Shown piece by piece: positions 24,930 to 50,849 of a stretch of DNA of 64,000 bases. Origin of the DNA: Megamerina dolium. Taxonomy: Eukaryota > Arthropoda > Insecta > Diptera > Megamerinidae. The stretch spans positions 36,742,540 to 36,806,539 of the forward strand of contig OY978527.1 in the NCBI GenBank assembly GCA_963854835.1, in the 5' to 3' direction. The notes under the pieces were generated by a model. The model had not been told where the DNA came from. It saw nothing but the letters and a program-made list of their open reading frames with translations, and made no database searches. The first letter of the stretch is position 1. The number at the start of each line of letters is the position of its first letter. The translations under genes and the position numbers were made by a program.

Positions 24930-25722
24930 TTAAACTCGAACCAATTCCATATAGAAGACAAAACATAAAAATTGTGCCATATTATTAGTTGAACCTAGAT
25001 TTACAATAACTTTATATTCGCCTGCCAAGTGTTTGTCTGGCAAAGAGGGTATCACTAAATCAGCAACCACATTTATATAAACAGTTAGCTGAAATTACAT
25101 AAAATGTATTTAAAAAAAAATGTCTTTCTCTTTGACTTTATTAAAGTTTATCCACCATCACTTACATTCTTAGGTATCGGACATTTACGATTCTCCATTG
25201 GCACTGTTTTTATAAAACGATACCAATAATCGGTTGGATTGAATAAGGCTTGACAAAAATCAGGACGATAAACATGATAAATTGTTGATATCCATCCATC
25301 TCGTTGGCGTTTATATACACGCGCATTAATCTTCATTAAATAAATGAGAAATGAGTAATTTTAAATTTAATTACGATCATCATGTCAATTAAGGTATTAT
25401 CACATATGTACCGGAGAAGGTTGCGTAATTCCTTCTTTTGACGATATATGCCCATACGCATGTATACTACCATTATTCAGCAAATCATATGTTACATTAC
25501 TGATGTCAACGATTTTATCAATAAAATCATTTGGATAATCATCACATTTTGAAAAAATTTCTTCTTCCAAGAGCAACACTTTATAATCATAAGCAGTCTG
25601 AAAATGCAATTTTTAATGTGCAATTCTTCTACTCTGTCTTCAAATTCGTACACACTTACGCTCATCTGAATCCATATGCAGATCAGCAGCAATTTTCCAA
25701 CCGACGCTAGTAACTTTGTCAT
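24930..25722 (-). CDS. secreted DUF1091/CheB-like protein, gene copy A
   Basis: Four exons with GT-AG introns, all phase 0: 25660-25722, 25412-25597, 25166-25330 and 24930-25088. Introns are 62, 81 and 77 bp. The product is 190 residues. Residues 1-21 form a signal peptide (MTKLLASVGKLLLICIWIQM). Exon 2 carries EEEIFSKCDDYPNDF. Exon 3 carries YRPDFCQALFNPTDYWY and MENRKCPIP. Exon 4 carries VIPSLPDKHLAGEYKVIVNL and FLCFVFYMELV. The spaced Cys residues and the 'iPxLPxGxYKV' block fit insect DUF1091 proteins, and the 'PDFC...NPTxxWY...CP' pattern fits the CheA/CheB chemosensory subgroup. These are extracellular, MD-2-like lipid-binding candidates. The family call is by motif only. An AATAAA signal lies about 16 bp after the stop. 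A TATA box is 55 bp upstream. Confidence 0.8.
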
Positions 25723-25776
25723 AGCTTTGTTATGGATTTAAATAATTATTAAAATGTGGGTAAGAGTTCGAATCTG

Positions 25777-25784
25777 CTTTTATA
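25777..25784 (-). promoter_or_regulatory. TATA box of gene copy A
   Basis: TATAAAAG on the minus strand, 55 bp upstream of the start codon, leaving room for a 5' UTR of about 25 nt. The same box stands at the same distance in copies C (46419-46426) and D (50904-50911). Confidence 0.6.
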
Positions 25785-25996
25785 CTCAAAAACTGAAAAA
25801 TCATTTGTTATTTTCATAGAAACAAATTATGGCTAGATTAAAAATATCATATATCTCGCGTGAATTCAACATGAAACGGAAATGTTATACACTCATATAT
25901 CATATTATTATACAACTATGTAGATATGAGTTCTAATAACAAATGACAAAAATTAATTGTAATTCCATAACGACAAGTCATTACTTGATTACTTCT

Positions 25997-26092
25997 GTTT
26001 AGGTCACCCTGTGCTAGTGGCATCTATTGCCGGCAGATGGCGCTGCCTACGTCGATAAAAGTTCCTTTTTTTAATATTAAACGAATTGTTTA
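25997..26092. mobile_element. 96-bp insertion flanked by ACTTCT repeats
   Basis: Units 2 and 3 read GATTACTTCTTTTGAAC without interruption. Units 1 and 4 carry 96 extra bases here, bounded by the 6-bp direct repeat ACTTCT (25991-25996 and 26093-26098). It lies about 0.3 kb upstream of the gene start. It encodes nothing and its class is unknown. The unit 4 copy is 51124-51219. Confidence 0.55.
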
Positions 26093-26249
26093 ACTTCTTT
26101 TGAACCTTAAAGTCTGTAAAACTGATTTCTTTATACAATCGGCACTTTGACCTAGATCGGTTTCAGAATGGCTTCGGAATGGTACGGTATACACAACTAT
26201 TCTGGACCAATATTCCATGAACAATTGACTGTGAAACTGCAGAGTTGAC

Positions 26250-26880
26250 GTTCGACAATAACTTACACACACACATTCTGGATAGAGCGAACTGGGAGTA
26301 TGGCAACATCCCTTTCAATGAAGCAATCCACTTCTTCATCGATGGCTCTAAGCGTAACGGACGATTGGGAGGAGAGGTATTTTCCGAAATCCCTCGAGTA
26401 TTCTGAAGGTTGCCGGACCACTGCAGTGTCTTTCAAGAGCAGAGGTCTTGGCAATTCATAAGGTTCACGCAAGTGGCATAAGTGGATCATTATAAGTCAT
26501 ATGGACGGAATCTCTAGAATCAGTTAATCCGAATTCATCAGTATGCCGTAATTAGCGAACATTTCTTCACCCAAATTATTGTCAAAAGTTTCAATTTGTG
26601 TTCACAAAAATAAAAATAAAATAAAAAATAATAAATATTCGGATTTTTAATTTGATATATTTAATATAATATAGAATTTGAGACGCTTGTAATGTCCGAT
26701 CAGTTATCGGGAACGAACCCGCAGAAAAGCTAGCAAAGAAAGCTACAATACTGCAAAGTTTTTCTGATAAGGAGAGAGACTCTCCAATGGGGGAGAGACA
26801 ATTATAGCAAAGAATGCAATTAGTCTAGGCATCTAGACGATGAGAAGAAACCGGTGTCCATAACTAACCATAACTAATTG
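26250..26880 (+). pseudogene. LINE RNase H fragment (R1/I-like), unit 1 copy
   Basis: The plus strand reads FFIDGSKRNGRLGGEVFSE (about 26326-26382, the first catalytic Asp block of RNase H), then RLPDHCSVFQ, and near 26695-26750 NVRSVIGNEPAEKLAKKAT (the 'GNExADxLA' block). Stops break it. The unit copies are 37640-37990, 47360-47690 and 51377-52520. It sits 0.5 kb upstream of the gene in every unit, so it predates the duplications. Here it is cut at 26881 by the gypsy-associated deletion. Confidence 0.65.
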
Positions 26881-26994
26881 TGTGCTGGGAACCAACTTTC
26901 GCAACGCTTGCAAGTATTGCCTTACGCGTGTGGTGTAATTCGACTGTTGCGACATTCCGCATTTGACACCTTGCAAAACGTGGGAATGTTAACT
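26881..26994 (-). repeat. gypsy 3' LTR, truncated to its first 114 bp
   Basis: Matches 33852-33965 with one difference (A for G at about 26924). The remaining ~158 bp of the LTR are absent. The break joins LTR TGTG to host TGTG, as shown by unit 4 (51951-51961). Confidence 0.9.
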
Positions 26995-27006
26995 CCCCTC
27001 CTTCTT
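26995..27006 (-). other. polypurine tract of the gypsy element
   Basis: On the minus strand AAGAAGGAGGGG lies immediately before the AGTTAACA start of the 3' LTR, the position of the plus-strand primer. Confidence 0.8.
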
Positions 27007-27125
27007 AAAGAAACGTCTCGTTTCTCTCAATTTCTTCTGAAATGCTTTTAACTTTACTTAACATGCTATCAAATAATTTTTGATTTGATTTTTTTTTCTT
27101 AATTTCATAACATTTAATTATTGCT

Positions 27126-28382
27126 TTAGCTACAATAAAAGATATGTAAGAGATACAGATTATGGTAAGCAGTGACAGAATGGAATATACTGTTGGTTGT
27201 CTTTGAATTTAAAAAATTTATATTTTCGAATTTTAGTTCTTCATTAGTGCTCTCTATATATTCAATTATTTCAAATTGATTTGGCTTATTATTTTTCAAA
27301 AAATTTCTAATTATGGCTGTTGGATTTTCGTAAGTTACATTATCGATTTTTGTCTTGTTTTCAAAAGTTATCAAGTAAACTCCTTGAAGTTTTTGGTCAT
27401 TTACTACATGTTCTCCTGAGATTAAAATTGCGCCATCTTTCAGCACCTCCAAATTGTGCAATTGCCCTTATTATTATTTAGTAAATTTGAAAAACATGAT
27501 TTTTTATAATTAAATTTACAAAAATTTCCATTTAGTTCAGCTTTACAGCTTTCGACATTATAAAAAAGATTTTTACACTTTACAATTTCTTTTTCTATTA
27601 CAAGTTTGCCATCAGGCTGTGATATTGCTCTTGATTCAAATAAATTACAATTTTTTTCAACAATAGGATATTTAATGTGAATAACTATTATATCATTATT
27701 TTGTAATATTTTAAATTTTGATGCGTCCATTAAATCAGTCAGCGTAATTTTTTGATGTTCGTGATCAGTGATATCTTGTATTTCTTTGAGGTTAAGGATC
27801 GCAGGGTTTAGGATGCCCATTTTGGATAATGTTATAGTCTGTATTGTGTTCTGTGGTTCATTTATTATTAGTCTATTTCTGTATCTAGTAGTCAAGGTAA
27901 TCTGCAAATTGGTTTGCGTATTCTGGAGTGAATTAGTCAGATCTGTAATGGCTTTAAATATTGCGGAGTTCGTTGTCCTTTGTCTATTGTTATTTTCTAT
28001 CAGTTCATTAAGATTTAAGTTGACTTTAACCATATCATCATGGTCGGGACTTCCTGATATCCATTTCAAATGGTTCCTAATTCATTTATTCCTCTTTTAG
28101 CCCTATAATTTGTCTGGATTAATTGCCGGAGCAAAGTATCAATTAGCTGTAATTCTAAATCTTTTCTTCGGTATCAAAATAATTTCGCTTTTTGCTTAAA
28201 ATTTCTTTAGTTTCTTTTATTATATTGGAGAAATACGTCAAATTCGTGATATGGAATATGTCACTATATTCCTTGTAAATTATTGCTTCCCCGTTCTGTA
28301 CTAATAAATAGTCTTCACGGGTATAATCTATTACTTCAGCTGTGGTAATTACAAAAAACCCAATTATACTCAAGACAAACAT
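27126..28382 (-). pseudogene. gypsy env, envelope-like gene, frameshifted
   Basis: Three frames cover the env position between pol and the 3' LTR: 28155-28382 (hydrophobic N-terminus resembling a signal peptide), 27440-28069 (209 codons, Asn/Ile/Leu-rich with a Cys cluster near its end) and 27126-27461. They lie in alternating frames, so at least two frameshifts interrupt the gene. The hydrophobic segment expected to anchor the protein is not in frame with the rest. Location and general character identify it as the third ORF of an errantivirus-like element; sequence motifs alone are weak. It should make no functional envelope protein. Confidence 0.75.
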
Positions 28383-28458
28383 TTTCTGAAAATATTATAA
28401 GAAAATTGAAAAAATATTAATTACTAATTGTTTTCCACTAGGGATGATCATAAAAAGA

Positions 28459-31400
28459 TTACGTTCTAATATTATTCTTATGGATAATTCTATTCCTACT
28501 GTATATTCTAACCATATTCCCTAAATCTTCCTTTACCTTTTGTTTCTTGAATCTCGGTTGGAGTTTATTCCTCTGGCCTATTAGTTTCTCATAAATTATG
28601 TCGCCATCTTTGTATGTTTTTACATTACTTGGGCCATTTCTATTTAACATTTTTTCCTGTGCCTTTTTTAGCTTTCTATAAGTATCACTATGATCGATTT
28701 TATTAAAAATAATCTCCGATGGTTTTTGTTCAACTACTGAGTGAATAGTTTCGTTGTACTGCTGTACCGCCCTAAAGAAACATTCAACGTCGTCTATTAA
28801 TTTGTATTCTTCTTTTAAACAGCGGGCTATTTCAACTAATGTCGAATGGGCTCTTTCTATTTGACCATTTGTAGTGCTGTGACGCGGCGTACAATAAAAA
28901 ATTTCTATGCCTAATCTTTGTATTAGTGTTTTAAATTGTGGAGTTATAAATCCAGGTTCGTTATCAATCGTGATCCTTTTTGCAAAGGGAAAACTTTGCA
29001 ACAAGTCCAAGACTTTTTCGCCTAAATCCGATTTATCTTCGATATGCTTTATAATGAGGAATTTGGAATAAGGATCAATGCAAGTCATGAATTTCAAATT
29101 TTGCGCGTAAAATATATCGATATTTAAATACTCCCCCTCCTTCTTTGGAATTGGAGCCTCTCCAATTTGTGTTCTTTGAGGATGTCTATTGTATTTATTT
29201 TTATTACAGATTCCGCAGCTTCGGACATGTTGTTTAAAATCAGGAATCATGTGAGGCCAGTAGTATTGCTTACAAATTTGTAAATAATTTTCTTTGTAGC
29301 TTCTGTGAGCTCTAATGTGAGTTTGAACAATAATTGATTGTTGATCGTCCTTATTTGTAATGTCTATTGGAAAAGATCTTGTATAGACAAATTTTATAGT
29401 GAAAATGTTTTTAATGGTTTCTTTGAACACATAAAGATCCTCTGGTGTACAATATATACCGGTTACTATATTTGGCCTCAAATATTCTTTTAAAATTGTT
29501 AATAAATTTTCCTTAGTATCAAATTCTATTATGTGTCTTGTCCTGTTAAAAGTTGTGACTGATTCGTGAATGGTAAATGTATTTTTTGATAGGAGAATTT
29601 GTTGCTTAAATTCATTTAGTGGTTTCTTTGTCTCTATTATCGTTAAATTATCACTGCTTTCAATCGAGTGCTGCGTTTCCAAGATTGATTCGGTCGCAGA
29701 CAAGTGGTTTAACCATTGTCTTGAACAGGCGTCGGCCACTACATTGGCCGTGCCAGGTTTATATATCATTTTCGGTGAGAACTCTTCTATAAAAGCTCGC
29801 CACCTTTTTATTTTAGAGTTTGGATTTCGATTTGAAACAGCGAAAGTCAATGGCTGATGGTCAGTATGGATTTCTAAATTAGACACTCCGTATAGATAAT
29901 TTCTTAGATTTTTTAGCGACCACACAATTGCGTAGAGTTCTTTCTCATTTGTCGCATAATTTTGTTCTGTAGAATACAAGGTTTTTGAGATAAATGTAAT
30001 GGGTTTTCCTTCTTGACTCAGTACAGCTCCTACTGCTACATCTGAGGCGTCTGTAGTTAATATGAATTTTTTGTTGAAGTCGGGTTGTGCGAGTTCAACT
30101 TGGTGGGTAAGTAAATCCTTAAGCTTTTGAAAGGCTGATATTCCTTCTTCATCTAATTTAATTTCTGTTTTCTTTGACACGTATTGAGAAACTCTGCCAT
30201 TCTCGCCTGCTAAATGTTTTGTTAATGGTTTCGCTATGCTTGCGTAATTTTTGACGAATTTACGATAATATCCTACAACTCCAAGAAAGCTTCTCAACTG
30301 TCTAAGCGTTTTGGGTAGAGGATAATTTTTTATTGCATCTATTTTGTTAGGATCGGTTTTTATGACACCGTGGGCTATAATGTAACCTAAGAACTCGACT
30401 TCTTTTGCATAAAACTTTGATTTTTCTAACGAGATTTTCATATTTGCCTCTTTAAGCTTATTTATTATTAATTTTAAATGCGAACTATGATTTTCTAAGG
30501 TATCCGAGTAAACGATAATATCGTCAATGTAGACATGACATATCCTACCTATAAATTCACGCAAAATGTTATCCATTGCTCTTTGGAATATACTAGGTCC
30601 ATTTTTAAGACCAAATGGCATACGCAAAAATTCATATTTTCCGTTATTAACGGAAAATGCCGTTTTTTCTATATCTTCTTTTTTCATCAATATCTGGTAA
30701 AAGCCAGATTCCAAATCGATCGTAGAAAAGTACTTTGCCTTTCCAAGATTAGACAATATAACATTGCAATCCGGAATAGGGTATTTATCCGATATGGTCT
30801 GTTCATTTAATTTTTTATAATCAATGACCATACGTAATTTTTGTGTACCGTCGGGTACAAATCCTTTTTTGGTACGACCCATATGGGTGAGTTATATGGG
30901 CTTTTACTCTCACGAATAATGCCATTTTTTAATAAATTTTTTATTTCGTCGTTGACGAAACTATTTGCAGAAAGAGGATAGAGATATTGCTTGCTCCATA
31001 TGGGCACTTCAGCAATTGTTCGGATTTCCGCTTTAATATCCGTTCGAAATGGCAAATTTAAATTAATATTTGAATGAATGTTTGCTACATCCTCCCTTAT
31101 TTTCCTATTTAGTGATTCCAAGTTTTCTTCATTTTTTAACTTCACTTCGATTCCTAAATCATTTTCTATTTTATATAGGATATTTTCTGTATCCTTTTTT
31201 CCTTTCTTACTTGAGTTATATAAGTTGTCTTCACTTAAAGACTCATTGCTACTAAAATTTAAAAATTTTTCTGAATGATCACCACATTGTAGAATTCCTT
31301 TTTCAAAATTTAAAATTATGTTTGCTTTTTTTCGAAAATTATACCCTATCAAGATGTCTGTTTCTAAATTGGGTATTTCGTAAAACCTTTGTGTTATTCC

Positions 31401-31550
31401 GAATAATGTGGCTACATAAAAATGTTTAATAATCGTAAAACCATTTATGGTTCTGACTCTTTTTTTTATTATAAGCTCCTCTTTGTTTTGAAATGTGTTC
31501 GGACTGCAGTAGCAACTAGTAGCACCGCTGTCAATTAAAATTGTATATTT
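28459..31550 (-). pseudogene. gypsy pol: protease, reverse transcriptase, RNase H, integrase
   Basis: The protease motif IDSGATS (31519-31535) opens pol in the -1 frame relative to the end of gag, the usual gypsy arrangement. The first part is open to about 30865. A one-base shift in a run of A residues, just after the NSPIWVV block, then moves the frame. From there 28459-30882 (807 codons) is open. It contains the YIDD catalytic box, RNase H with TTDASDVAVGA and TDHQPLTF, the integrase HHCC zinc region (HIRAHR ... CGICNK), and the integrase acidic residues in NIDIFY, TIDNEPGF and NGQIERAHS. All catalytic residues look present, so the A-run indel is the main visible lesion. It could be a real mutation or a homopolymer sequencing error. 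Confidence 0.95.
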
Positions 31551-32715
31551 TCTTCCGGATCTTCCCCTTTTGACGATGAAGGGTAGTCCGGATTTTCCTC
31601 TAAAAAAGTGTCCTCATTAATGTTATTTATCCGCTCTGCTTTATGCTGCGGTTGATTACTAACTTGCCCGCTACCCAGTGGTCTCTTTTGGGCTTGCTGA
31701 GCATATTGCGTATTAAAAGGATATTGAAAATTTGGTCTCTGTTGATACTGATATCTTTGACCATTAAAACCATTGAAGTTTTGCCTTCTGTAACTATTGT
31801 GAGTAGGGGGGACGCGTTGTGTCGACGGGTCGACTTCCATTGGCTCAGGTCTGGAGCTTTTAATAAAATTTTGGTTAAAATTGTTGGCTTGATTTGAATT
31901 GCCTGGATTAAAATAATTTTGCCTATCTCCCCTAGGAAAACGCAAGACGTTTTGTGTCTGTTGTTTATTGTTGTAAATTGGATTAGGTTTAACAAATTGT
32001 TGAGCGAAACTTGCTCTGACATGATTAGCCTCAAGCTCCTGGGCTTTAGCTAAACCGTTAAAATATCGTTTAGAGGACTGTTTAGTCCGGTTATGAACAC
32101 GCGAAGGGCATATTGCCTATGTTTGCTATTTAATTCATTCGTAAGGGGGCTATTTGAACCATGCGACATGATGGTTTTATTTATTAATAATGTTAACTTT
32201 TTGTTAACTTCATTGTAAAAATCTAACAGTGTTTTCTTTCCCTGCCTCATAATGCTCAATTCCTGTTCAATGAGATGTACTGGCCGTTTGTCAGCATACG
32301 CAAAGTCGACCCTGCTGACTATGGCATCAAAATGCAAAACAGTCCCATGGTTCGTGAGGACGTCGTTTGCCTCGTTAGCTATTTTGTTGCGCAAAATAGT
32401 GAGAGCCGCGAAATATTTCCTACTACCTTTTGTATATAAGCTTAATGAATTATGAGCGGCTTCGCGCCAACTCACATACGTATTTTCTTTACCCGAAAAT
32501 ACTGGTAGCGATTTTATAACGTCTAAAGTTTCTTCACATATAATCCTTTCATCTATAGTTTGCTGAGTGTATTCTATTACTGTACTTCCTGAACTCAAAT
32601 TTCCTACTTCAGTTTTAAGCCTAGTTATTTCTGCCTTCAGTTCTGCTGTACTCCTTGCAATAATCCTAGTGACTACATCCTCGGTCAATTGAGATGTCGA
32701 GCTACTTGTCGTCAT
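31535..32715 (-). pseudogene. gypsy gag, frameshifted
   Basis: The first frame (32050-32715, 221 codons) encodes the capsid-like part. The second (31535-31945 and its upstream extension) encodes an Asn/Gln/Arg/Tyr-rich C-terminus with a PMEVDPST motif and no obvious Cys-His knuckle, as in the gypsy group. A small indel near 32050 puts the two halves in different frames. The gag stop (31535-31537) overlaps the protease frame, consistent with -1 frameshifting in the original element. Confidence 0.88.
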
Positions 32716-33676
32716 GGTTGCGAATAAATTAACTAGCTCGTCCAGTATGTAATTTCTTTAATTTAAATAATTAAAATATTTATTATACGAAATAATATAG
32801 TAATTTTTAATCAACTAATTTTGTGTACAATATAATAATTAATTTTCCGTGACAATAAGCTAAATTATTTAATTTTGGTTTTATTTTGATAGAATCACAA
32901 TTTTCAATAATAAACTTAAACTTTACTTATCGCTGTCACTTCAGGTGTCTGCTTGCTGCTTTATCCTATTCGCCCACTTATTACTTGTATCACCATGTGC
33001 TACTGTCTGTACGTTGATTTTGATTTTCTTCCGTTGTTGTTCGCAGCGATTTTTCGCTTACATATTTATGCGCCCCTTGATAATATTTTTATTGAAATTT
33101 TAGTTCACTTTTCACGACGTGTAATCGTTTTATCCTTTTAACTTTGTCCACTTGTTGATTCTTTTGTAGAAGTTTATTTTACAAATATTTTCAAGGTTGT
33201 TTTAACTTGTTAATTTTAAATCTGTCTTTACGATTCGCATAATTAGATTTAATTAGATTAATGTGGATTTAGTTTTTTAATTTTCGTTAAATTTCCTGTG
33301 ATTTAATTATTTCTTATATTTTATATTTCCAAGAATTTTTATTAAATTTTTTATTGTTCTTTGTAAACATTTAATAAAATACCATGTCACGAATTTATAA
33401 TTAAAGTGAGAATTTATTATTTAAATTAAAATGCAAGAAACACCGTGCTCCTTCACTTGCAACTTTGTAACACTTTTGTGCGGATTTTTTGTTCAATTTT
33501 TAATCTCACTATTTGCTGTTCCGTTTTTGATTTATATTAATTTATATTTTTTGTTCCTTTAATTGATTAAAACTTTCGTTAAATTTTTAGTTGCTTTTTT
33601 TTGTTTTTTGGTTGGTTTATAATTTTATGGCACTTGCGTATCCTTACTTTGTATTTTCAGGAGTTATTTTGCGTTG
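32716..33676 (-). other. gypsy 5' leader
   Basis: About 960 bp of very AT-rich, non-coding DNA between the primer-binding site and gag. In Drosophila gypsy the equivalent leader contains an insulator; I saw no clear cluster of Su(Hw)-type sites here. Confidence 0.6.
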
Positions 33677-33693
33677 CCCCACGTTGGGCGCCA
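33677..33693 (-). other. primer-binding site of the gypsy element
   Basis: TGGCGCCCAACGTGGGG on the minus strand directly follows the TTAATT end of the 5' LTR. The TGG start is complementary to a tRNA CCA end. Confidence 0.8.
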
Positions 33694-33965
33694 ATTAATT
33701 CTTGCCGAACGGCGAAATCAAAAAAAATATATTTTCACCTTGAGCTTAAGCTCAACTTTATTTCTTCATCTTCAACTTAGAACTGGCTCACAAAATTGCT
33801 TAATGCTAAACCTTTGCCAAAAATCCCTACCTACGTCACGTTGCACTAGCATGTGCTGGGAACCAACTTTCGCAACGCTTGCAAGTATTGCCTTGCGCGT
33901 GTGGTGTAATTCGACTGTTGCGACATTCCGCATTTGACACCTTGCAAAACGTGGGAATGTTAACT
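33694..33965 (-). repeat. gypsy 5' LTR, full length (272 bp)
   Basis: On the minus strand it starts AGTTAACATTCCC at 33965 and ends AAGAATTAATT at 33694, followed by the primer-binding site. The flank at 33966 (TGCATATATCTG) is the host sequence found at 52776 in unit 4. Confidence 0.9.
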
Positions 33966-35504
33966 TGCATATATCTGTAATTGTTGAAATATGTGTATAC
34001 ATAGTCGTATGTATGCATTACAAATAAAACACATAAGCATTGCAATTGCTAAAAGCGTATGTATCTAGAGTGGTTGGCACATATGAACCATTCTGCAGGG
34101 TAACTATGTATCAGCTGCAGTGCGATAGTGTGTGCGGCCGCATGGATTTGTGTTGATAACGACAACATCCTGTCATGGAGGATGTGTTTAAGGATATGTT
34201 CATATGTCATTGTTGTTGTTGTATTCCACACACTCTTGTATTTCCCATCTCTCTTTCTCTCTCTCTCTCTCTCGCTGAGGGTGGGTATGTACCATCTCCC
34301 CCATGGAAAACAATAATGTTTGTCAAGTTAATATGGAGATTCTCAAGATACACTATATTACGTACTTTCAGACACAAACATACAAGTATAAGCTATTGTC
34401 ATTGTTGTTGTTAGTGGTTATTGCCATAATGATGCTCATGTTGCAACTACATAGAAATAAAAAGTATGCTACATTTAGATGGACAAATGCTATATAATAC
34501 ACGTATATTAGTTTACATATTGTGAGTTATAACATCCCAATGGGTACCATGAGCAGTTGGGTCTATATAAAAACAAGGAGAAAGAATGAGAGCGCCCAGG
34601 AATAACTACTGAGATGTATGCTTTAATGCTTGAATTATTATTTTGCTAAATAATACAATAATAATAATGATAATAATAATCATAGGGACCATAAGTCTTT
34701 GACTCTTGCATTACAGTTGTGTTGTGCGGGTTTGTTATGGCTGCTTTCGGTTCCTCTCTCGCAGAGGTAAAGTTAATATTGTCAATGCTACATAGCTTCA
34801 TACTGAGTTAGTGTCATTTTGAAGCGTATGTTATTACCTTATAGTTGTGCATATATATATTTATATATATACGGACTATGTAGGTTAGATATTAGTGAAT
34901 AAATGAACAGTTGAATTTTTTCATTTTTCAACAATATTACATATAGTGTGCCTTAAATTTGTATGCCGCTACAAACTACTACCTAATTTTATTACTCAAC
35001 ACATTTACAAGTGTGCTAAGGCAGGTACAATAGTCTCAGTATATTGTATTAGCAGTTGTTCCAATAGAACATTGAAGTGCTTTCTAGTATTCCACGAGCA
35101 ATCAATATAAGATGACATTGGGCCCTAGCGAAGGTTTCTCAAAGCAAACATTTTGAATTATATTTGTGACGACTCGAAAAACCCTAATGTGATGGCAGAA
35201 ATCTGATCACGAATTCACCAAAAATCCATGAAATGTGGCTATTCGGTTCAGTTGAATATTTGATTTTTTCGTGGATCTGACAAAGCAATAAAACAAAAAG
35301 CAATTAGAATTTACAGAAATCACATTCAATGCATTTTTGATAGCTAAAGCAAAACCTTTAGGATATTTCATAATACAAAACAAAAAAAAAAAACAAAAAA
35401 CAGCAAAAATAGATATTGTGAAATTAGAAAGAAATCCGATCTAGCGACCAAAACTCCAAAGAATGCAACTATTCCAGTTTGTTGATATCTTCTTCATCTT
35501 ATGT
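33966..35504. repeat. unit 1 spacer, duplicated at 52776-54325
   Basis: Collinear with 52776-54325 with scattered substitutions and indels (for example a longer CT microsatellite at 34250-34272). It includes a TAA/ATA microsatellite near 34660-34680. No frame shows coding character; the shared open frames are explained by the duplication. Confidence 0.85.
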
Positions 35505-35775
35505 GGCCATAACAACCTGTGATCGATTTAGGCCGAACATATAATGCGACGCCATTCTTAACTGTTCTCCGCTTGCTGGCGCCAATTGGATATTCCAAGC
35601 GCCGTCAGGTTACCCAACACTTGGTCCTTCCAACGGAGGTTTGATTCCTTCTTCTGCGTCTTCCAGCCGGTGCCGAATTAAATACCCTCTTCGCTGGAGC
35701 GTTTTCTTCCATTCGCTCGACACGACCGAGTCAGCACAGCTGCTGGATTTTGATTCGCTTGACTATGTCAATATC
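35505..35775 (-). pseudogene. family R LINE 3' fragment, intact empty site
   Basis: Same fragment as 19640-19928 plus 24216-24230. On the plus strand it reads GATTCGCTTGACTATGTCAA and on into TATCAGTGGTG without the Jockey insertion. On the minus strand it encodes the frameshifted C-terminal tail and 3' UTR of the family R reverse transcriptase. Confidence 0.85.
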
Positions 35776-35789
35776 AGTGGTGTTTATAC

Positions 35790-36477: not shown

Positions 36478-37267
36478 TTAAACTCGAACCAATTCTATAT
36501 AGAAGACAAAACATAAAAATTGTGCCATATTATTAGTAGAACCTAAATTTGAAATAATTTTAAAGTCGCCTTCCAAGTGTTTGTCTGGCAAAGAGGGTAT
36601 CACTAAATCAGCAACCACATTTATATCAACAGTTAGCTGAAATTACATAAAATGTATTTAAAAAAAAATGTCTTTCTCTTTGACTTTATTAAAGTTTATC
36701 CACCATCACTTACATTCTTAGGTATCGGACATTTACGATTCTCCATTGGCACTGTTTTTATAAAACGATACCAATAATCGGTTGGATTGAATAAGGCTTG
36801 ACAAAAATCAGGACGATAAACATGATAAATTGTTGATATCCATTCATCTCGTTGGCGTTTATATAAACGCCCATTCAACTTGATTAAATAAATAAAATAT
36901 AAATTTCAAATTTAATTACGATCATCATGTCAATTAAGGTATGATCACATATGTACCGGAGCAGGTTGCGTAATTCCTTCTTTTAACGATATATGCCCAT
37001 ACGCATGTATACTACCATTATTCAGCAAGTCATATGTTATATTACTGATGTCAAAGAATTTATCAGTAAAATCATTCGGATAATCATCACATTTTGAAAA
37101 AATTTCTTCTTCCAAGAGCAACACTTTATAATCATAAGCAGTCTGAAAATGCAATTTTTAATGTGCAATTCGTCTACTCTGTCTTCAAATTCGTACACAC
37201 TTACGTTCATCTGAATCCATATGCAGATCAGCAGCAATTTTCCAACCGATGCTAGTAACTTTGTCAT
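36478..37267 (-). CDS. secreted DUF1091/CheB-like protein, gene copy B
   Basis: Exons 37205-37267, 36957-37142, 36714-36878 and 36478-36636, with the same lengths and phases as copy A, giving 190 residues. The signal peptide ends IWIQMN. Exon 2 differs from A at DFTDKFFDISNITYD. Exon 3 starts LNGRLYKRQRDEW. Exon 4 reads SLPDKHLEGDFKIISNL and FLCFVFYIELV. All Cys positions are kept and there is no stop or splice-site loss, so the gene could be functional. Compared with A, C and D, about 20 bp between the TATA box and the ATG are missing, leaving almost no room for a 5' UTR. Function as for copy A, by family resemblance only. Confidence 0.78.
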
Positions 37268-38009: not shown

Positions 38010-41000
38010 TTTATACCCTGCATAATGCAATATGCAAGGTATATTCATTTCGGTCAGATGTTTGTGTCCACTTGAAGGAATCTCCGGAGATATAGATATA
38101 TATTCGTGATCAGTGTCGCATACATTTTCGATTTAACGATGTACGTCCGTCCGTCCGCCTGTCTGTCACCTGGCTGGTTCGCACGATAACTTGAGCAAAT
38201 ATTGAGCTATTTTGACGAAATTTGTGTTTTCTGCTGAGGTTCAAGATAGTATCAACCTTAATCTGTTCAGGATCAATGAATCTTTTCGACTACCGCATGC
38301 CTGTTTGGGCTCTCCAGTAAACGGTTAGACTAATTTTTTCCTTTTCACATATTAAGTTGTTCATGAAGCTACTGTTTACCCCGCAGAAGGGTTCTGGGCC
38401 TATGAAAGGAGTGTCGGCGCCCTTTTTGGCCAGTAAATCTGCCATTTCATTTCCTGCGTGCCCCTGGTGTCCCGGTACCCATATTAGAGTCACAGAGTTC
38501 CACTTTGCTAAGATGTTGAGGAGTTCAAAGCATTGTCCAACCAACTTAGATTGGAACGAGAAATTCATTAGTGATTTTAGAGCTGTCTGACTGTCCGATA
38601 GAATGCATATGTTGGTTCCTCGAGTGCCTCTACGTAGACATTCTCTGACAGATAGCTCTAAGGCGTGGACCTCCGCCTGAAAAATGGAATCTATTTTTCC
38701 CATTGCAATTGCCTTCCGGAAATTTGGACCTACAATTCCCGCTCCAGCACTGCCATCTTCCATTTTGGACGCATCAGTGTACCATAGCTGTGAGCCCCGT
38801 TCTAGAAATATTTCGTTGTTTCTCCACGCTGAGAAATATTAATTTTTTATCCATCCTGTAAAAAACCGTGAGGCCCTGTGAATTCCAGACTACGTCTAAA
38901 ATCTTAAAGTGCCCTTTTAGGTTACCTTCTTTCAGGTGAATAGAGTTCGAAAGCCTTATGGCTGCACTGGCTGCTGTCCTCTTAACAATGAGGTGTAGAG
39001 GATTGAGACCTGTGATTATTCCTAAAGCTGCTGTGGGGCTAGTTCTCATCGCTCCCGTTACGTTCAAACAGGCTATTCGATGAATCCTGTTAAGGATCAT
39101 CTGAGTCCCAATTTGATTTACCTTCGGCCACCATGCCAGAGAGGCATAGGTGATCATTGGTACTATTACAGTTTTGTAAGACCACGCCATCATTTTAGGT
39201 CGTAGTTCTAAAGTTTTACCTACAGCCTTTGGCAAGCGAAGGTAGCCCTCAGGGCTTTGTTCGTGATGTATTATAAATGGTTGTTCCAAGTAAGAGTTTT
39301 ATCCAGGATTACTCCCAAATATTTCATCTCCTCAGAGAGTGTTAGTTCTGTTTCACCTAACTTCAAGATCCCTAAATTCAACTTCCTCCTCTTCGTGAAG
39401 GGTACGAGCGTCGCTTTGCTAGGGTTTATCGAAAGTTCTTTCTCTTCACACCAGTCTTGTGTGATGTCAAGAGAAATAACTTTCGATAGGTAGAGTCAAA
39501 TTTGCCTCTAACCATAATTATTAAGTCATCTGCAATGCCCTGAACTTCGTATCCGAGATCATCGAGAGGTTGTAAAAGCTTGTCAATGACCAATAACCAT
39601 AGGAGCGGCGATAAAACGCTTCCTTGAGGACAACCCTTGGTTGTCTTGACAATTAAGTTTTCTGTCCCCATTTCGTAAATTAATGTCCTATTTTTCAGCA
39701 TATTAAGAACGCATGTTATGATCAGTCTATGAATTTTCTTCCTGACCATACCTGTTGAAAGTAGCATTATCAAAAGCTCCTGTAATGTCAACCGATGTAC
39801 AAAGAGCTATTTCTTTACCCTCTAATGCCTGTTTGATTTTACTCGTTAGGCAATGTATTGCAGTCTCAGTCGACTTCCCTGACTGGTAAGCATATTGTTC
39901 AGTAAAGAGTGGTGTATCTTTAAAATAAACTTCCCTGATGTACTGATCTATAATTTTTGCCATTGCTTTTAGCAGGAAGGATGTTAGGCATATGGGCCGA
40001 AAGGATTTGGGCGTGTGATCAGCCTTTTCTCCTGCTTTCGGGATGAAAGCGACCCTTGATTTTGTCCATGATTTAGGCACTGCACCTAATTCCAGGCTTA
40101 TTCTGAAAATTTTTGTAAGAATTGGTGCTAATACTTTAGCCCCTTGCCGGAGAAGGCAAGGTTTAATATCATCAACACCCGGAGATTGCCCATTTAGTTT
40201 TATTGACGGTAAACATTTTACGAGCTAGTGATAGTGACCTGCGTGTAGCCATCAAGAAAGTGATATCCTCGATGCTTTCACAGTCCTCATCACAGGTGGC
40301 ACAGCCTGAAAAGTGAGAGTCCAGCAGTAAATGTCCCGTTTCATAATTTCAATCTGCCTTTTTAAGTGTAGAAAGGCCAACTGAGTAATCTTTTTTGAGC
40401 GATTTCTGGAGTCTGGTAGCTACTGGGAGCGCCTCGATCTCCTCGCAAAACCTTTTCCATGAGTCTCTCTTAGATTCTCTCAGTTTGTTATTGTAAGCCG
40501 TTAAGGCACATTTATAGGATACTCAGTCTCCATTAGACTTGGCTCTGTTGAAAAGCTGACCTGCTTTCTGGCGTAACTTGTTAAGTTCCTCGCTCCACCA
40601 AGGGACATTCCTAGGACGTTTCTTCACCAGCAAGTCGCAGCTCTTTTCAAAAGCTTCAGTTATTGTTTCTTCAAGTTTCCTGACCTCGAGGTCCAGTTCT
40701 TGAGAATTGTTAATTCTCTCATTTAGGCACCCTAAATTTTGCTCTAAGTAGAAGTTCCTAGCATTCCTAATTTCGAAGATGTCTTCATGACCTTCGCCTT
40801 TTAGGTCAAAGCGTATATAACGATGATCCGACAAGGAGACTTCATCTAACACCCTCCAGTTAGAAATGTTGTTAGGTATAAATGCACTAGTTAGAGTGAG
40901 ATCTAGCACCTCCCCCCTGATTGCATTTACAAAAGTTGGTTCATTTCCCCTATTTAACACCACAATGTTGTTAGTAGTAATGAAATAAAAAAGTTACTCA

Positions 41001-41845: not shown

Positions 41846-43103
41846 TTGGGTGATCCAAGTAGACATACTTTTTTCAATAGTCTTTTTTTGACAGATCACG
41901 TGTGAATCGTGTCATGCTGTCATGTTATTTTTGTTTAGTATTGTTTGGCATTTCATCATGGAAAGACTTACTCCTGAACAACGTTTACAAATCCTTCAAC
42001 TTTATTACGAAAATTCACGTTCTGTGAGGAATGTCTTCCGTACACTTCGTTCAACTTATGGTCAACATAATCGGCCTACTGAGCGTACTATTCACAACAT
42101 CATCACCCATCTTGAGACCCAGAATTCATTATTGGATAATAATCGACCGAATAGACCACGTCCAGCACGCAGTGAAGAAAATATAGCGGCCGTAGCTGAG
42201 AGTGTACACGAAGACCGTGGAGAGTCGATTCGACGCCGTTCGCAGCAACTCGAACTGACGTATGGAACGACAGCTTGTGCAAGAACTGAAGCCGCCCGAC
42301 CATCCCAAGCGACATCGCTTCGCTCTATGGGCTCTTGAAAAGTTCCAAGAAGATCCGACGTTTTCGAGCCAAATTTTGTTCAGCGATGAGGCCCATTTCT
42401 GGCTCAACGAGTATGTAAACAAGCAAAATTACCGCATTTGGGACGAAGAGCAACCTGAAGAGATTCAACAGCTGCCACTTCATCCAGAACAAACAACGGT
42501 TTGGTGTGGTTTGTGGGCCGGTGGAATAATCGGTCCATATTTCTTCAAAAATTATGCCGGTGAGAACGTAACCGTCAATGGCGACCGTTATCGTGCCATG
42601 ATATCCGACTATTTGATGCCTAAAATTGAAGCTCGTGATCTCGGCGACATTTGGTTTCAACAAGATGGCGCCGCTTCGCACACATCGTATCAATCCATGG
42701 ACTTATTGGGAGAACACTTCAGTGAGCAGATAATTTCACGTTTTGGGCGGGTCGATTGGCCACCAAGATCGTGTGATATCACACCGTTAGACTTTTTCCT
42801 GTGGCGATATGTAAAGTCTAAAGTTTATGCGGACAAACCCGCTTCGATTCAGGCCTTGGAGCAAAACATCACGCGTGTCATTCGCCAGTTACCAGTCGAA
42901 ATGCTCGAACGAGTCATCGAAAATTGGACTCAACGGATGGGCCATCTGAAACGTAGCCGCGGCCAACATTTGAAAGACATAATCTTCAAAAAATATATGC
43001 CAAAGAATGTTGTTTCAAATGATAATAAACATTCCCCATTCAATTTGAATTTTCTGTGTTTTTTTCTTTAAAAAAGTAGGGAACCTCGAAATGGATCACG
43101 CTT
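41846..43103 (+). mobile_element. D,D41D ('rosa'-type) mariner with ends and TA duplication
   Basis: A 1258-bp element. The two ends share GTGATCCA and TACTTTTTT in inverted orientation (left about 41846-41874, right about 43072-43103). They are flanked by TA at 41844-41845 and 43104-43105. The transposase inside has 41 residues between the second and third catalytic Asp, the spacing of the rosa group described from tephritid flies. Confidence 0.85.
41958..43071 (+). pseudogene. D,D41D mariner transposase, one frameshift
   Basis: Translation from MERLTPEQRLQILQLYY (41958) gives the helix-turn-helix half up to LELTYGTT near 42270. The frame then changes, and the remaining 269 codons (42262-43071) are open. 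That part carries LFSDEAHFWLN (first Asp), GIIGPYFFKNYAG, WFQQDGAASHTS (second Asp) and DWPPRSCDITPLDFFLW (third Asp after 41 residues). The jump from YGTT to QLVQELK removes the end of the DNA-binding half, so I infer a short deletion. Apart from that, the catalytic half is the best preserved DNA-transposon domain in the window. Confidence 0.92.
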
Positions 43104-43105
43104 TA

Positions 43106-45633: not shown

Positions 45634-46364
45634 TTAAAGTCGAACCAATTCTATGTAGATGAGAAAACATACATATTGTGGCATATTATTAGTAGAACCT
45701 AGATTTACAATAATTTTGTATTCGCCTGCCAAATATTGATAAAACAAATTTCTTTCTATTTGCTTTTATTGAAGTTTATCCATTATCACTTACACTCTTA
45801 GGTACAGGACATTTACGATTCTCCACTGGCACTGATTTTATAAATCTATAATAATAATCGGTTGGATTGAATAAGGCTCGACAAAAATCAGGACGATAAA
45901 CATGATAAATTGTTGATGTCCATTCGTTTCGTTGGCGTTTATATACACGCGCATTAATCTTCATTAAATAAATGAGAAATGAGTAATTTTAAATTTAATT
46001 ACGATCATCATGTCAATTAAAGTATGATCACATATGTGTATGTATATGATACCGGAGCAGGATCCATAATTGCTTCTTTTAACGATATATGCCCATATGC
46101 ATGTGTACTACCATTATTCAGCAAATCATATGTTACATTACTGATGTCAACGAGTTTATCAATAAAATCATTTGGATAATCATCACATTTTGAAGAAATT
46201 TCTTCTTCCAAGTGCAACACTTTATAATCATAAGCAGTCTGAAAATGCAATTTTTAATATGCAATTCTTCTACTCTGTCCTCTTAATTCATATACACTTA
46301 CATTCATCTGAATCCATATGCAGATCAGCAGCAATTTTCCAACCGATGCTAGTAACTTTCTCAT
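45634..46364 (-). pseudogene. DUF1091/CheB-like gene copy C, exon 4 acceptor deleted
   Basis: Exon 1 (46302-46364, starting MRKLLASVGKLL), exon 2 (46053-46238) and exon 3 (45794-45958) are intact, with GT-AG boundaries and the TATA box at 46419-46426. Relative to the other copies about 75 bp are missing before 45731. This removes the third acceptor and the first ~20 codons of exon 4 (the LTVYIN to PDKH region). Only the GEYKI-to-stop end (45634-45731) remains. Splicing to the next AG, in GGCAG, would shift the frame and stop after six codons. I infer a pseudogene, or a truncated protein lacking the last strands. Exon 3 changes (NEWTS, CRALF, SVPVENRKCPVPKS) place C close to the 3' half of copy D. 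Confidence 0.85.
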
Positions 46365-46566
46365 AGCTTTGTTATAGATTTAAAAAATTATTCAACTGTG
46401 GGTAAGAGTTCGAATCTGCTTTTATACCCAAAAACTGAAAATCATTTGTTATTTTCATAGAAGCAAATTATGGCTAGATTAAAGATATCATATATCTCGC
46501 GTGAATTCAACATGTAACGGAAATGTTATACACTCATTTATTATTATACAACTATTCGATAATATA

Positions 46567-47140
46567 CACAGTGCGACAACTATGTAATGAAACTCGAACC
46601 ATATCTCAGCAACCAAACGCGCCATCTATGTGTGAGCACATGCGTTTTGAAGCTTCAACCTTCCTCTACTAACTGTCAAATTTGGCATTTGGTTGACATT
46701 TAATGTTTATTGACATTCATTTTACAAGACACGTGTTCGTTTGATGTTGAAATTTTAACATGAAATTTAACATGAAATTTAACACACAGCACTCATTGTT
46801 CGTCAATTTTTGGTTCGGAATCAGGTCTGTGTGTTGAATCACCCACCGTATTCACCTGATTTGGCACCGTGCGACATCCTTTTGTTCCTAAAACTGAAAT
46901 TGAAGTTGAAAGGATGCTTTTTTGATGACATTCAGACCATACAACGGGCTTCGACGAGGGCACTGAAGGTAATTCCGAAAAATTAGCTAGAACACGCGTT
47001 TGAATCACTATTGAAACGATGTAACAAGTCTATTGAATCAGGAGGAGAATATTTCGAATAAATATACCGAAAAATTAGAAAATATCGTGTTTTAATTGTG
47101 TTTTATAGAGGCAGTCTTAATACATAGTTGTCGCACTGTG
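46567..47140 (+). mobile_element. short mariner derivative (574 bp), perfect inverted repeats
   Basis: A perfect 20-bp inverted repeat, CACAGTGCGACAACTATGTA (46567-46586; inverted 47121-47140), with TA on both sides. The interior keeps only the transposase C-terminus: LNHPPYSPDLAPCDILLFLK and then LEHAFESLLKRCNKSIESGG on the plus strand, broken by a stop. It lies about 0.2 kb upstream of gene C. The other units are empty at this site. Confidence 0.93.
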
Positions 47141-47359
47141 TATGTCGATATGAGTTGTAATAACAAATGACAAAAATTAATTGTCATTCCGTAACAGCAA
47201 GTGATTACTTGATTACTTCTTTTGAACGTTAAAGTCTGCAAAACTGATTTCTTTAGACAATCGGCACTTTGACTTATATCGGTTTCAGAATGGTACGGTA
47301 TATACAAGTATTCTGGACCAATATTCTACGAACAGTGGACTATGAAACTGCCAAGTTGA

Positions 47360-47690
47360 CGTTCGACAATAACTTACACACACACACACATTCTGGGTAG
47401 AGCGGACTGGGAGTATGGCAGTAACTCTGTCAATGAACCAATCCACTTTTACATCGACGGTTCTAAGCGTAATGGATGAACGGGAGGAGTGGTATTTTCG
47501 GAAACCCTTTGAGTCCGCATATTCTGAAGGTTGCCGGACCAATGTAGGGTCTTTCAAGACCAGAGCTCTTGACAATTCATGAGGTTCATGCAAGTGGCAT
47601 CAGTGGAACATAATAATGGACGAAATCTCTAGAATCAGTTAATCCAAATTCATCAGTATGCCGTGATTACCGAATATCTCTTAACCCTAT
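47360..47690 (+). pseudogene. LINE RNase H fragment, unit 3 copy
   Basis: Nearly identical to the unit 2 fragment: FYIDGSKRNG, a stop, TGGVVFSETL. Here the first catalytic block keeps Gly in DGS. It ends at the same LINE junction. Confidence 0.55.
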
Positions 47691-47707
47691 TTTCCTAGAG
47701 TATCATT

Positions 47708-49963
47708 TTTATACCCTGCATAATGCAATATGCAAGGTATATTCATTTCGGTCAGATGTTTGTGTCCACTTGAAGGAATCTCCGGAGATATAGATATAGA
47801 TATATATTCATGATCAGTGTCGCATAAATTTTTGATTTAACGATGTCCGTCCGTCAGTCAGTCCGTCCGTCTGTCTGTCACCTGGCTGGTTCGCACGATA
47901 ATGTGAGCAAATATTGAGTTATTTTGACGAAATTTGTCTTTTCTGCTGAGGTTCAAGATAGTATCAACCTTAATATGTTCAGGATCAATGAATCTTTTCG
48001 ACTACCGCATGCCTGTTTGGGCTCTTCAGTAATCGGTTAGACTAATTTTTTCCTTTTCACATATTAAGTTGTTCATGAAGCTACTGCTTACCCCGCAGAA
48101 GGGTTCTGGGCCTATGAAAGGAGTGTCTGCGCCCTTTTTGGCCAGTAAATCTGCCATTTAATTTCCTGCGTGCCCCAGGTGTCCCGGTACCCATATTAGA
48201 GTCACAGAGTTCCACTTTGCTAAGATGTTGAGGAGTTCAAAGCATTGTCCAACCAACTTAGATTGGAACGAGAAATTTATTCGTGATTTTAGAGCCTTCC
48301 CCATAGCGTATGATGTGCATTAGCGTCGCAACACATCACCCATTTAAGATTCCCAGTGAGGCAGTAACCCACGAGTTGCTGGAGCTCCTGGTTACTGCCT
48401 CCTGGTACACGTTGTAGGAGCTCTGAAATTGGAAGAAATTTAATATTTTTGTTGATGAGTAACGCTGCCCTGGGTCGGTGAGCATTTACTCGTAGATCAA
48501 CTTACATGTTTTTGTCTGCAGACCATTTATTTGTCCATGTGCGGCCCATGGTTCTTGGATGACTACAAAGTCCAAACAATTTTGTTCCACCATGGCACTG
48601 AGTGTGTATGAGGCGCTATTGCCCGGTGGAGATTTATTTGGAGGCATTTGAGCTGCCTCTAACTACCAGTATGCATTCGAGGTGGAGCCTGGGACATTAT
48701 TTCCCAGGCTGGCCCCTTCGGACCTTACCACCTTTCGTGCTTCGCAAGATTTCCCTGGCTTCCAGATCCTTGCGTTCCCATTTCCTGCGCCGACCAGAGA
48801 GCAGAGATGGTTCTGGACGCCAGGCACTGGTGCCCTTCTCTGCTATCGGTGCTGGCTTTGCGGTGCTGTAATCCGTTTTCAGCTTTCGGCTATGTGCTTG
48901 CGCACGAGCCGCCGCCGAAGTCGAAAGTTGCTCTTCAGCAACAGTCTTGACTTTTGCCCTGTTACCATTTAGCCTGCGTCTTAGCTTGGCACTGCCAAAG
49001 CCATAAAGACTTTTTTGCTCAGCTTTTCAACCACTTCCGAAGACTGTGGGTACAGGGCCACCGCTAGCTCGACACGGTCACCTTTGTGACCATTCGCTAA
49101 CACAAATGTCCGCGTTCTGTGACTCAATTTGCTGCAGAATTCGGTCATTTGACCACTATACTGAGCCAGGGAAGTATCCTACAAAGATTTTGGCCTCGTC
49201 CACAACCTTTAAATCGGCTCCCTCCCATGGTTTCAGGGCTGGTACCATCTCTTTCAACCAGGCCACAGTTTCGTCGTCCAGACAGTTAATAGTTAACCAT
49301 CCGGTCTTAAAACCATAGCCTGCAAAGTGAGGCTTCACCGGGCCACAGCGGGACTCGTCGATGATGCATTTCCGCACCTTGCCAATTTCCTCAGTGGACC
49401 ATATTCCCTCCGGGAAATTGTTTGGGATAACCCCGACCTTCTTAGAGCGGACAGCTTCAGCCAGAGTTGGCTTCGAACAGGGAACGAACACAGGAGCGAT
49501 TTGTGGAGCCACTCCTTTAGAAGCTACCGCTGCCACCGCCTCCATCTCCCCGCAGACCGGCACAGCGAACGCAGTCGAAGGCACTGTTGATGGTCTATCA
49601 ACCCTACCCTCAGGTGCGAATCGCTTTGTCGGCTTGGAGCTCGATGACGGAGTGGAGCCATCTGATCGGGATCTTTTCGGGGTCGTTTGTACGTCGCTAG
49701 TCGTAATTACTCCAACAGGCTTTACCACCAAGGACCTTGCTGTTTCCAGCGGTATGCCCTTGGCAAGTAAAGCCTTCAGCGTCTTGCGTCCAGCCCCGGA
49801 TAGCTTCACCCTGTCGGTTTTGGAGTCTTCCCTTGGGAGAACGCGTTCCTCCTCATGTGTGATGTGAGTTCCAGCCGACTCTTGGCTAAGTTGGACGTCC
49901 ATCCTTCCAAGACTGTCGGAAGAAGGGCTATATGCCCCCTCCGATTGGTCTTGGTCCATGTTC
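47708..49963 (-). pseudogene. LOA-like LINE, 2.4-kb internal deletion, keeps ORF1 remnant
   Basis: Same 3' end as 38010-41565. At 48297 the sequence jumps from mid-RNase H directly to the endonuclease region (equal to 41024 in unit 2), so the reverse transcriptase is gone. Upstream it keeps the endonuclease start (MVEQNCLDFVVIQ), then a long ORF1 (49156-49959, starting MDQDQSEGAYSPSS). That ORF1 is Ser/Pro/Lys-rich and then has the globular VGVIPNNFPEGIWSTEEI ... GWLTINCLDDETVAWL region. This resembles the DUF4780 domain seen in insect LINE ORF1 proteins. ORF1 is cut by a stop after YFPGSV. The 5' end joins the 3' flank of gene D. Confidence 0.8.
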
Positions 49964-50051
49964 TCAGTAAATGACACATACAAATTTTAATCAATCCAAA
50001 TGTTTTTTGTTTTATTGTAAATTTTTGTAATTTATTTTCAAAATTACTCGT

Positions 50052-50849
50052 TTAAAGTAGAACCAATTCCATGTAGATGAGAAAACATAAATATTGTGGC
50101 ATATTATTAGTTGAACCTAGATTTACAATAACTTTATATTCGCCTGCCAAGTGTTTGTCAGGCAAAAAGGGTATCACATTATCCGCAACCACATTTACAT
50201 CAACAGTTAACTGAAATTATATAAAAAAAAAAAATTAGAAAAATTTCTTTCTATTTGACTTCATTGAAGTTTATCCATCATCACTTACATTCTTAGATAT
50301 TGGACATGTACGATTCTCCACTGGCACTGATTTTATAAAACTATAATAATAATCGGTTGGATTGAATAAGGCTCGACAAAAATCAGGACGATAAACATGA
50401 TAAATTGTTGATATCCATTCATCTCGTTGGCGTTTATATACACGCGCATTAATCTTGATGAAATAAATGAGATATTAATTTTAAATTTAAAGACGATCAT
50501 CATGTCAATTAAAGTATGATCATATATGTATATGATACCGGAGAAGAGTCCATAATTGCATCTTTTAGCGATATATGCCCATATGCATGTATACTACCAT
50601 TATTCAGCAAATCATATGTTACATTACTGATGTCAACGATTTTATCAATAAAATCATTTGGATAATCATCACATTTTGAAAAAATTTCTTCTTCCAAGAG
50701 CAACACTTTATAATCATAAGCAGTCTGAAAATGCAATTTTTAATGTGCAATTCTTCTACTCTGTCTTCAAATTCGTACACACTTACGCTCATCTGAATCC
50801 ATATGCAGATCAGCAGCAATTTTCCAACCGACGCTAGTAACTTTGTCAT
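50052..50849 (-). CDS. secreted DUF1091/CheB-like protein, gene copy D (mosaic)
   Basis: Exons 50787-50849, 50539-50724, 50289-50453 and 50052-50210, with introns of 62, 85 and 78 bp and 190 residues, all open. Exon 1 and most of exon 2 are the same as copy A (SVGKLLLICIWIQMS; EEEIFSKCDDYPNDFIDKIV). From the HISLKDAIMDSSP end of exon 2 onward it resembles copy C (CRALFNPTDYYYSFIKSVPV; NMPQYLCFLIYMELV). Cys residues and the VIPFLPDKHLAGEYKVIVN block are kept. The TATA box is at 50904-50911. This is a plausible functional gene produced by exchange between units. Function as for copy A, by family resemblance. Confidence 0.8.

What the first reader, a model, noticed from the sequence alone, without database searches (positions are those of the whole stretch)
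24930..50849. Four-copy array of a small secreted DUF1091/CheB-like gene embedded in transposon-rich segmental duplications
Four head-to-tail minus-strand copies share exon lengths (63/186/165/159 nt), phases, TATA box and flanking LINE fragments. Three are fully open (A, B, D) and one is broken (C). Lineage-specific expansion of CheA/CheB-type proteins (implicated in contact chemosensation and pheromone response in Drosophila) would be notable, and here the duplication vehicle is visible. Gene structure is seen directly; the family is an inference from Cys spacing, the PDFC/NPT block and the LPxxxxxGEYKV block.
Basis: partly seen in the sequence, partly recalled or inferred. Interest (0 to 1): 0.78.

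Follow-up and report, generated by a model that had tools for sequence, protein, structure and literature searches.

The report
Recombining array of secreted lipid-binding fly genes
The window holds four recently reshuffled copies (three intact, one broken) of a fast-changing fly gene that probably makes a small secreted lipid-binding protein, an ordinary kind of local gene-family expansion rather than a new system.

Summary
In detail: four minus-strand copies, exons 63/186/165/159 nt, phase 0; A, B, D open, C lacks the start of exon 4. A, B and D pass Pfam's DUF1091 cut-off (27-30 bits vs 25) and match an unnamed fly family profile to profile (99%, E 2e-18; shuffles at most 0.5%). That family's predicted fold ranks GM2-activator first among solved structures, with TM-scores under 0.5. 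CheA/CheB membership could not be tested. These are the only close copies found in the 500-Mb genome; distant relatives with the same introns 2 and 3 form two small groups on contig 1. New here: A is a mosaic of B and D (12 runs, shuffles mean 68), with 0/1117 differences from D over promoter to exon 2 and 1/214 and 1/203 from B in two later tracts. dN/dS is near 1, so constraint on residues is not shown; constraint on frame is (0 of 6 indels coding). A haplotype join in the assembly could mimic the A unit. New member of a known kind; moderate interest.

The parts
24930..25722 (-). Gene A, intact: exons 25660-25722, 25412-25597, 25166-25330, 24930-25088; 190 aa; mosaic of D-type (5') and mostly B-type (3') sequence
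   Evidence: DUF1091 30.1 bits
36478..37267 (-). Gene B, intact: exons 37205-37267, 36957-37142, 36714-36878, 36478-36636; 190 aa
   Evidence: DUF1091 27.4 bits
45634..46364 (-). Gene C, broken: exons 46302-46364, 46053-46238, 45794-45958 open; 76 nt missing at the intron 3 acceptor and start of exon 4; remnant 45634-45741
50052..50849 (-). Gene D, intact: exons 50787-50849, 50539-50724, 50289-50453, 50052-50210; 190 aa
   Evidence: DUF1091 27.2 bits
25484..26600 (.). Tract of A (upstream sequence, promoter, exon 1, most of exon 2) with 0 of 1117 differences from D; extended to 26884 it is 6 of 1351 with 2 gaps
24216..25251 (.). 3' part and downstream flank of A, B-type: 1/214 (25038-25251), 1/203 (24775-24977), 8/559 (24216-24774) differences from B, broken by a 35-nt patch identical to D (24990-25024)
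33963..35777 (.). Right flank of unit A, matching the right flank of D (52773-54609); 21 mismatches in the first 1185 aligned positions, more divergent in the terminal repeat
35488..35777 (.). Repeat at the junction of units A and B; left part like the repeat right of D, right part like the repeat left of A
19637..19928 (.). Left-hand copy of the boundary repeat
54316..54604 (.). Right-hand copy of the boundary repeat
19940..24214 (-). LINE (zinc-knuckle-associated ORF, endonuclease and RT frames; ends approximate) in the left flank of A; CTATGTCAAT on both sides; uninterrupted site at the junction copy near 35770
26881..33965 (-). LTR element between A and B, 114-nt end repeats 99% alike; pol and Gypsy env-type domains in separate frames (described only)
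38293..40993 (-). LINE remnant right of B; part of it is shared with C's flank, where about 2.4 kb are missing

Best explanation
A small tandem array of one fast-evolving gene for a secreted, lipid-binding protein of the DUF1091 / GM2-activator-like superfamily. Shown: four copies, three open; family membership by profile; gene A is a chimera of B-type and D-type sequence. Predicted: the family's fold. Inferred: a signal peptide sends the product out of the cell, where the beta-cup binds a hydrophobic ligand (a cuticular or other lipid) and carries or presents it, as proposed for CheB. The array grows and is homogenised by unequal exchange and gene conversion between copies and between repeats at the unit borders; C is a copy on its way out. 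The tissue (taste or leg sensilla, reproductive tract or other) is unknown; a chemosensory role is my first guess at about 0.3.
For: Gene structure, TATA and poly-A signals; DUF1091 over cut-off in A, B, D; end-to-end BLASTP to a Stomoxys protein, E 7e-18; hhalign of the window trio alone against 15 fly proteins 99.0%, E 2.3e-18, 20 shuffles at most 0.47%; four cysteines kept in 8 of 8 aligned own-genome proteins; introns 2 and 3 at the same places and phase in five distant paralogues; family model pLDDT 85.1, all 7 Foldseek PDB matches at E<=0.001 are GM2-activator chains, the top 20 VIA rows are GM2-activator, NPC2, MD-2 or MD-1; mosaic test; hybrid junction repeat, 31 R to 9 L then 3 R to 19 L, 0 of 20000 shuffles with as few runs; 6 of 6 indel events among A, B, D lie outside coding sequence, p 0.006.
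Confidence: 0.7

Rival explanations
1. The A unit is not a true fourth copy: one haplotype carries a single B/D hybrid gene (a deletion allele) and the other carries B-C-D, and the assembly joined them head to tail at the repeat.
For: A's flanks differ by 1.4% from B (8/559) and 1.8% from D (21/1185), as alleles might; A begins like the left end and finishes like the right end of the B-C-D block; the join lies in a repeat.
Against: Assembly in 8 contigs, so presumably chromosome-scale; the R-like part of the junction repeat differs from the right-hand repeat visibly more than the flank does, which a simple allelic join does not predict. No reads could be examined.
Confidence: 0.2
2. All four copies are pseudogenes or nearly so, drifting neutrally after loss of function on the stem.
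For: dN/dS near 1; one of four is broken; exon divergence B-D (54/573) is close to intron divergence (24/217).
Against: A, B and D all keep frame, splice sites, TATA and poly-A signal; 0 of 6 indel events in coding sequence; four cysteines and other invariant residues kept after a stem of 2.6 changes per site.
Confidence: 0.2
3. The genes are true CheB (or CheA) orthologues with male foreleg gustatory expression.
For: DUF1091 and GM2-activator-type fold of the family; CheB42a is a secreted protein (PMC2827562, passages).
Against: None of the 18 homologues retrieved is named CheA or CheB as far as the names are shown; the window genes lie on a very long branch; no expression data.
Confidence: 0.12

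Closest known systems
Unnamed proteins of Schizophora flies (e.g. D. ananassae GF11757, D. simulans LOC6734775, Musca LOC109613956, Stomoxys A0A1I8Q462)
   Same: Hydrophobic N-terminus, four cysteines, EIFSKC / W..T / DFC / KC / G.YK / C blocks, length about 190-205 aa in most, profile match 99%
   Different: 20-24% identity; window genes lack the WDVEPTDRI block and are two residues shorter there. Window genes have an intron behind the signal peptide that the contig-1 paralogues lack; gene structures of the other flies were not examined
CheA/CheB proteins of Drosophila (CheB42a)
   Same: Small secreted proteins; CheB is discussed in print as related to GM2-activator (passages). That CheA/CheB fall in DUF1091 is recalled
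   Different: Direct sequence relation not tested; no Che name among the homologues; expression unknown
GM2-activator protein, NPC2, MD-2 (ML/GM2A lipid-binding fold)
   Same: Best-ranked solved structures for the fly family's model
   Different: 8-13% identity in rows 1-14 of the VIA list, TM-scores under 0.5; ligand and role unknown

Membership tests
Pfam DUF1091 (PF06477) | Whole-protein score above the curated cut-off of 25 bits | tested here: met
   A 30.1, B 27.4, D 27.2 bits
Pfam DUF1091 (PF06477) | Most of the 83-position domain covered | tested here: met
   A 1-83, B 2-83, D 1-78
Unnamed fly family of alignment A3 | Profile-profile similarity beyond shuffled controls | tested here: met
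   99.0%, E 2.3e-18; local rerun 99.45%, 20 shuffles of columns 25-190 at most 0.47%
Unnamed fly family of alignment A3 | Four conserved cysteines and W, T, D, G positions | tested here: met
   Alignment A2: W96 T99 D107 C109 C133 G161 C180 invariant in 14 of 14 rows, C39 in 90% or more
Unnamed fly family of alignment A3 | PTDR signature, invariant in 15 of 15 aligned fly members | tested here: not met
   Absent from A, B and D; I call the window genes a divergent sister branch, not a typical member
CheA/CheB | Nested with named CheA or CheB proteins in a tree | not testable with these tools
   No protein named CheA/CheB was returned
CheA/CheB | Expression in gustatory or other chemosensory sensilla | not testable with these tools
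   No expression data on hand
GM2-activator / ML lipid-binding fold | Beta-cup fold | tested here: inconclusive

The most novel reading that the evidence does not exclude
The array is a site where recombination between copies is building new lipid-binding proteins: gene A joins the promoter and N-terminal part of D to a mostly B-type C-terminal part, in a branch with dN/dS near 1 and a stem of 2.6 changes per site, so that ligand range and expression of the copies are being reshuffled under diversifying selection.
Probability: 0.15. Interest if true: 0.55.

Novelty: new member of a known kind. Interest (0 to 1): 0.34.

Why it matters
It ties an unnamed, fast-evolving fly protein family to DUF1091 and, by prediction, to the GM2-activator lipid-binding fold, and shows an intact chimeric copy, relatives of both its parents, a broken copy and repeats at the unit borders together in one place, so that gene birth and death by unequal exchange can be read off directly. 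If expressed in sense organs or the reproductive tract, it would be a small test bed for how contact-signal binding proteins diversify.

Tried and rejected
A homology search with protein A alone found nothing at E<=0.001; only an alignment that included the contig-1 paralogues reached fly proteins, so the family link was re-tested without those paralogues. Sequence searches of solved structures gave only chance-level matches, best E 0.25 and 0.11. tblastn of A on 28 loci of the genome gave weak matches only, best E 0.048. Four of five typed paralogues (L029, L031, L032, L033) were scanned with Pfam and none reached the DUF1091 cut-off (best 14.1 bits); of the 15 fly proteins 10 match DUF1091 at E<=1, best 1.9e-4. 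That the LINE beside B is an insertion absent from C was rejected: the LINE's RNase H frame runs across the break, so C more likely carries a deletion. The two DUF1091 classes of the genome that I profiled are at best remote kin (4.6% and 2.0%, against shuffles of at most 1.1% in 20 and 0.25% in 18 that returned a score). That A and D are one locus assembled twice was rejected for the gene itself (35 coding differences); a haplotype join for the A unit remains a rival. In 25260-25419 A agrees clearly with no one copy (13/157 B, 9/157 D, 8/160 C). A paper on CheA/CheB turnover that I recall (Torres-Oliva 2016) is not held and was not read. Six paper searches were made; of their hits I saw passages of PMC2827562, PMC6721284, PMC9801554 and PMC10844241 and of the rest only the listing. 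Whether A's left flank is a dispersed repeat was asked and never answered.

Rows dropped: homologues P0009, P0010 and P0018 (with an insert, short, partial) were left out of alignment A3 and the tree (P0009 and P0010 are in A2); paralogue L034 (frame broken) was left out of all alignments; of 102 DUF1091 hits 43 were used, 34 of them in the two classes compared. In the junction test only columns 22-338 with letters in all three copies count.
Full report
Observation. The window lies at contig 3, 36.74-36.81 Mb, of a 500.5-Mb, 8-contig genome. On the minus strand there are four copies of one gene. C keeps exons 1-3 open; 76 nt are missing, taking the intron 3 acceptor and the first 51 nt of exon 4. 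TATAAA 42-62 nt upstream of the ATG and AATAAA from base 16 after the stop position occur in all four. A whole-genome protein search gave 26 matches: 16 in these four copies and 10 weak ones elsewhere (E 0.01 to 0.5), at three places near contig 1, 104.92-104.93 Mb, three near 101.39-101.40 Mb and one on contig 2 (the tool calls such counts lower bounds).

Family. Pfam DUF1091 is the only family over its cut-off in A, B and D. It was not found in the window by the exon-wise genome search (102 hits, none inside the window), as expected for a domain that intron 3 splits. The single-protein search of 5.8 billion proteins found nothing. An alignment of A, B, D with models of five contig-1 paralogues found 10 fly proteins at E<=0.01, and a wider one 15 at E<=1, 18 different proteins in all, from Drosophila species, Musca, Stomoxys and Haematobia; the names shown are 'uncharacterized' or 'hypothetical', with one 'Reelin domain-containing' and one UniRef name cut off at 'MD-2-related lipid-r'. 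Because those profiles held the paralogues, I tested the window trio alone against 15 of the 18: hhalign 99.0%, E 2.3e-18 over 167 columns; rerun locally 99.45%, with 20 shuffles of columns 25-190 at most 0.47%. BLASTP of A with the Stomoxys protein alone gives E 7e-18 nearly end to end. The trio scored only 4.6% and 2.0% against two DUF1091 classes of its own genome, slightly above the shuffles. The paralogues themselves miss Pfam's cut-off (four of five scanned), and 10 of the 15 fly proteins match DUF1091 at E<=1 with best E 1.9e-4: this is an outlying branch of the superfamily. That the organism is a fly is inferred from these matches.

Place in the family. In a tree of 23 proteins the window trio is a 100/100 group on a stem of 2.61 changes per site, nearest by path to paralogue L029 at 3.4. 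PTDR, invariant in 15 of 15 fly proteins, is missing from all three window products, while cysteines 39, 109, 133 and 180 are kept. Intron 2 and 3 positions and phases agree with paralogues L029-L033; these have no intron behind the signal peptide. Gene structures in other flies were not examined.

Recombination. At 137 sites in 24775-26000 where B and D differ and A agrees with one of them, A forms 12 runs; 20,000 shuffles average 67.9 with a minimum of 43. Upstream sequence, promoter, exon 1 and most of exon 2 (25484-26600) differ from D at 0 of 1117 positions (6 of 1351 if extended to 26884); 25038-25251 and 24775-24977 differ from B at 1/214 and 1/203; a 35-nt patch in exon 4 (24990-25024) is identical to D; 25260-25419 agrees clearly with no one copy. 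The outer flanks are slightly more divergent: 8/559 to B on the left, 21/1185 to D on the right. A is thus read as a recent chimera made by exchange plus conversion; the direction of each transfer is not known. The repeat where unit A meets unit B is like the repeat right of D in its left part (31 of 40 sites) and like the repeat left of A in its right part (19 of 22); 16 runs against a shuffled mean of 31.7, 0 of 20,000 as low. Against a simple picture, its R-like part differs from the right-hand repeat visibly more than the flank does, so the exact partner copy may be lost or converted. A LINE in A's left flank has CTATGTCAAT on both sides, and the junction copy shows the uninterrupted site. 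An LTR element with pol and a Gypsy env-type domain in separate frames separates A from B.

Selection. dN/dS by Nei-Gojobori is 1.06 (A-B), 1.13 (A-D), 0.90 (B-D), and 0.69-1.00 with exons 1-3 of C. Three paralogues at 101.39 Mb give 1.18-1.41; the pair at 104.92 Mb gives 0.57. None of these was tested for difference from 1. The neutral share of amino-acid changes is 0.745 at kappa 2 and the observed B-D share 41.8 of 54. Constraint on residues since duplication is therefore not shown. Frame constraint is: 6 of 6 indel events among A, B, D in 24880-25872 lie outside coding sequence although it is 58% of the stretch, p 0.006; chance openness after 54 changes is 13%. The conserved cysteines and intron positions along the long stem argue that the ancestor was functional.

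Verdict. The array is real and belongs to a known kind: local birth and death of small secreted genes of a lipid-binding superfamily. Turnover of Che-type genes is already in print; for example a passage of PMC6721284 reports a contracted CheA/CheB family in some tsetse flies. This genome has at least 102 DUF1091 domain hits, many in clusters. What is worth keeping is the chimeric gene A, the great divergence of the branch, and the link of the unnamed fly family to DUF1091 and, by prediction, to the GM2-activator fold. The best functional reading, inferred, is extracellular binding of a hydrophobic ligand; chemosensory use is possible but unproven. An assembly join of two haplotypes is the main rival for the A unit. 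My confidence in the main reading was set slightly lower (0.70) on re-reading the TM-scores.

Noticed in passing
G000 contigs 1, 2, 4 and 5 (e.g. C4:13.05-13.08, C4:19.86-19.92, C4:29.84-29.89, C2:71.02-71.18, C1:117.25-117.77 Mb): 102 DUF1091 hits in the genome, many in clusters, of at least two sequence classes.
   Followed up: partly
L029-L034 (C1:101.39-101.40 and 104.92-104.93 Mb): Two further groups of at least three copies of the window's subfamily; the first has dN/dS of 1.18-1.41, and one copy of the second (L034) has a broken frame.
   Followed up: partly
46564-47143: Short element upstream of C with 31-nt inverted ends (90% complementary), absent at the matching place in B; looks like a MITE.
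   Followed up: no
499-1567: Mariner-type transposase (Transposase_1, Mos1 HTH) in two overlapping frames, minus strand.
   Followed up: no
41892-43068: DUF4817 helix-turn-helix frame followed by an overlapping frame without a Pfam match that looks transposase-like by eye.
   Followed up: no
49159-49986: 276-codon open frame with a DUF4780 domain directly downstream of D, probably transposon-derived (origin guessed).
   Followed up: no
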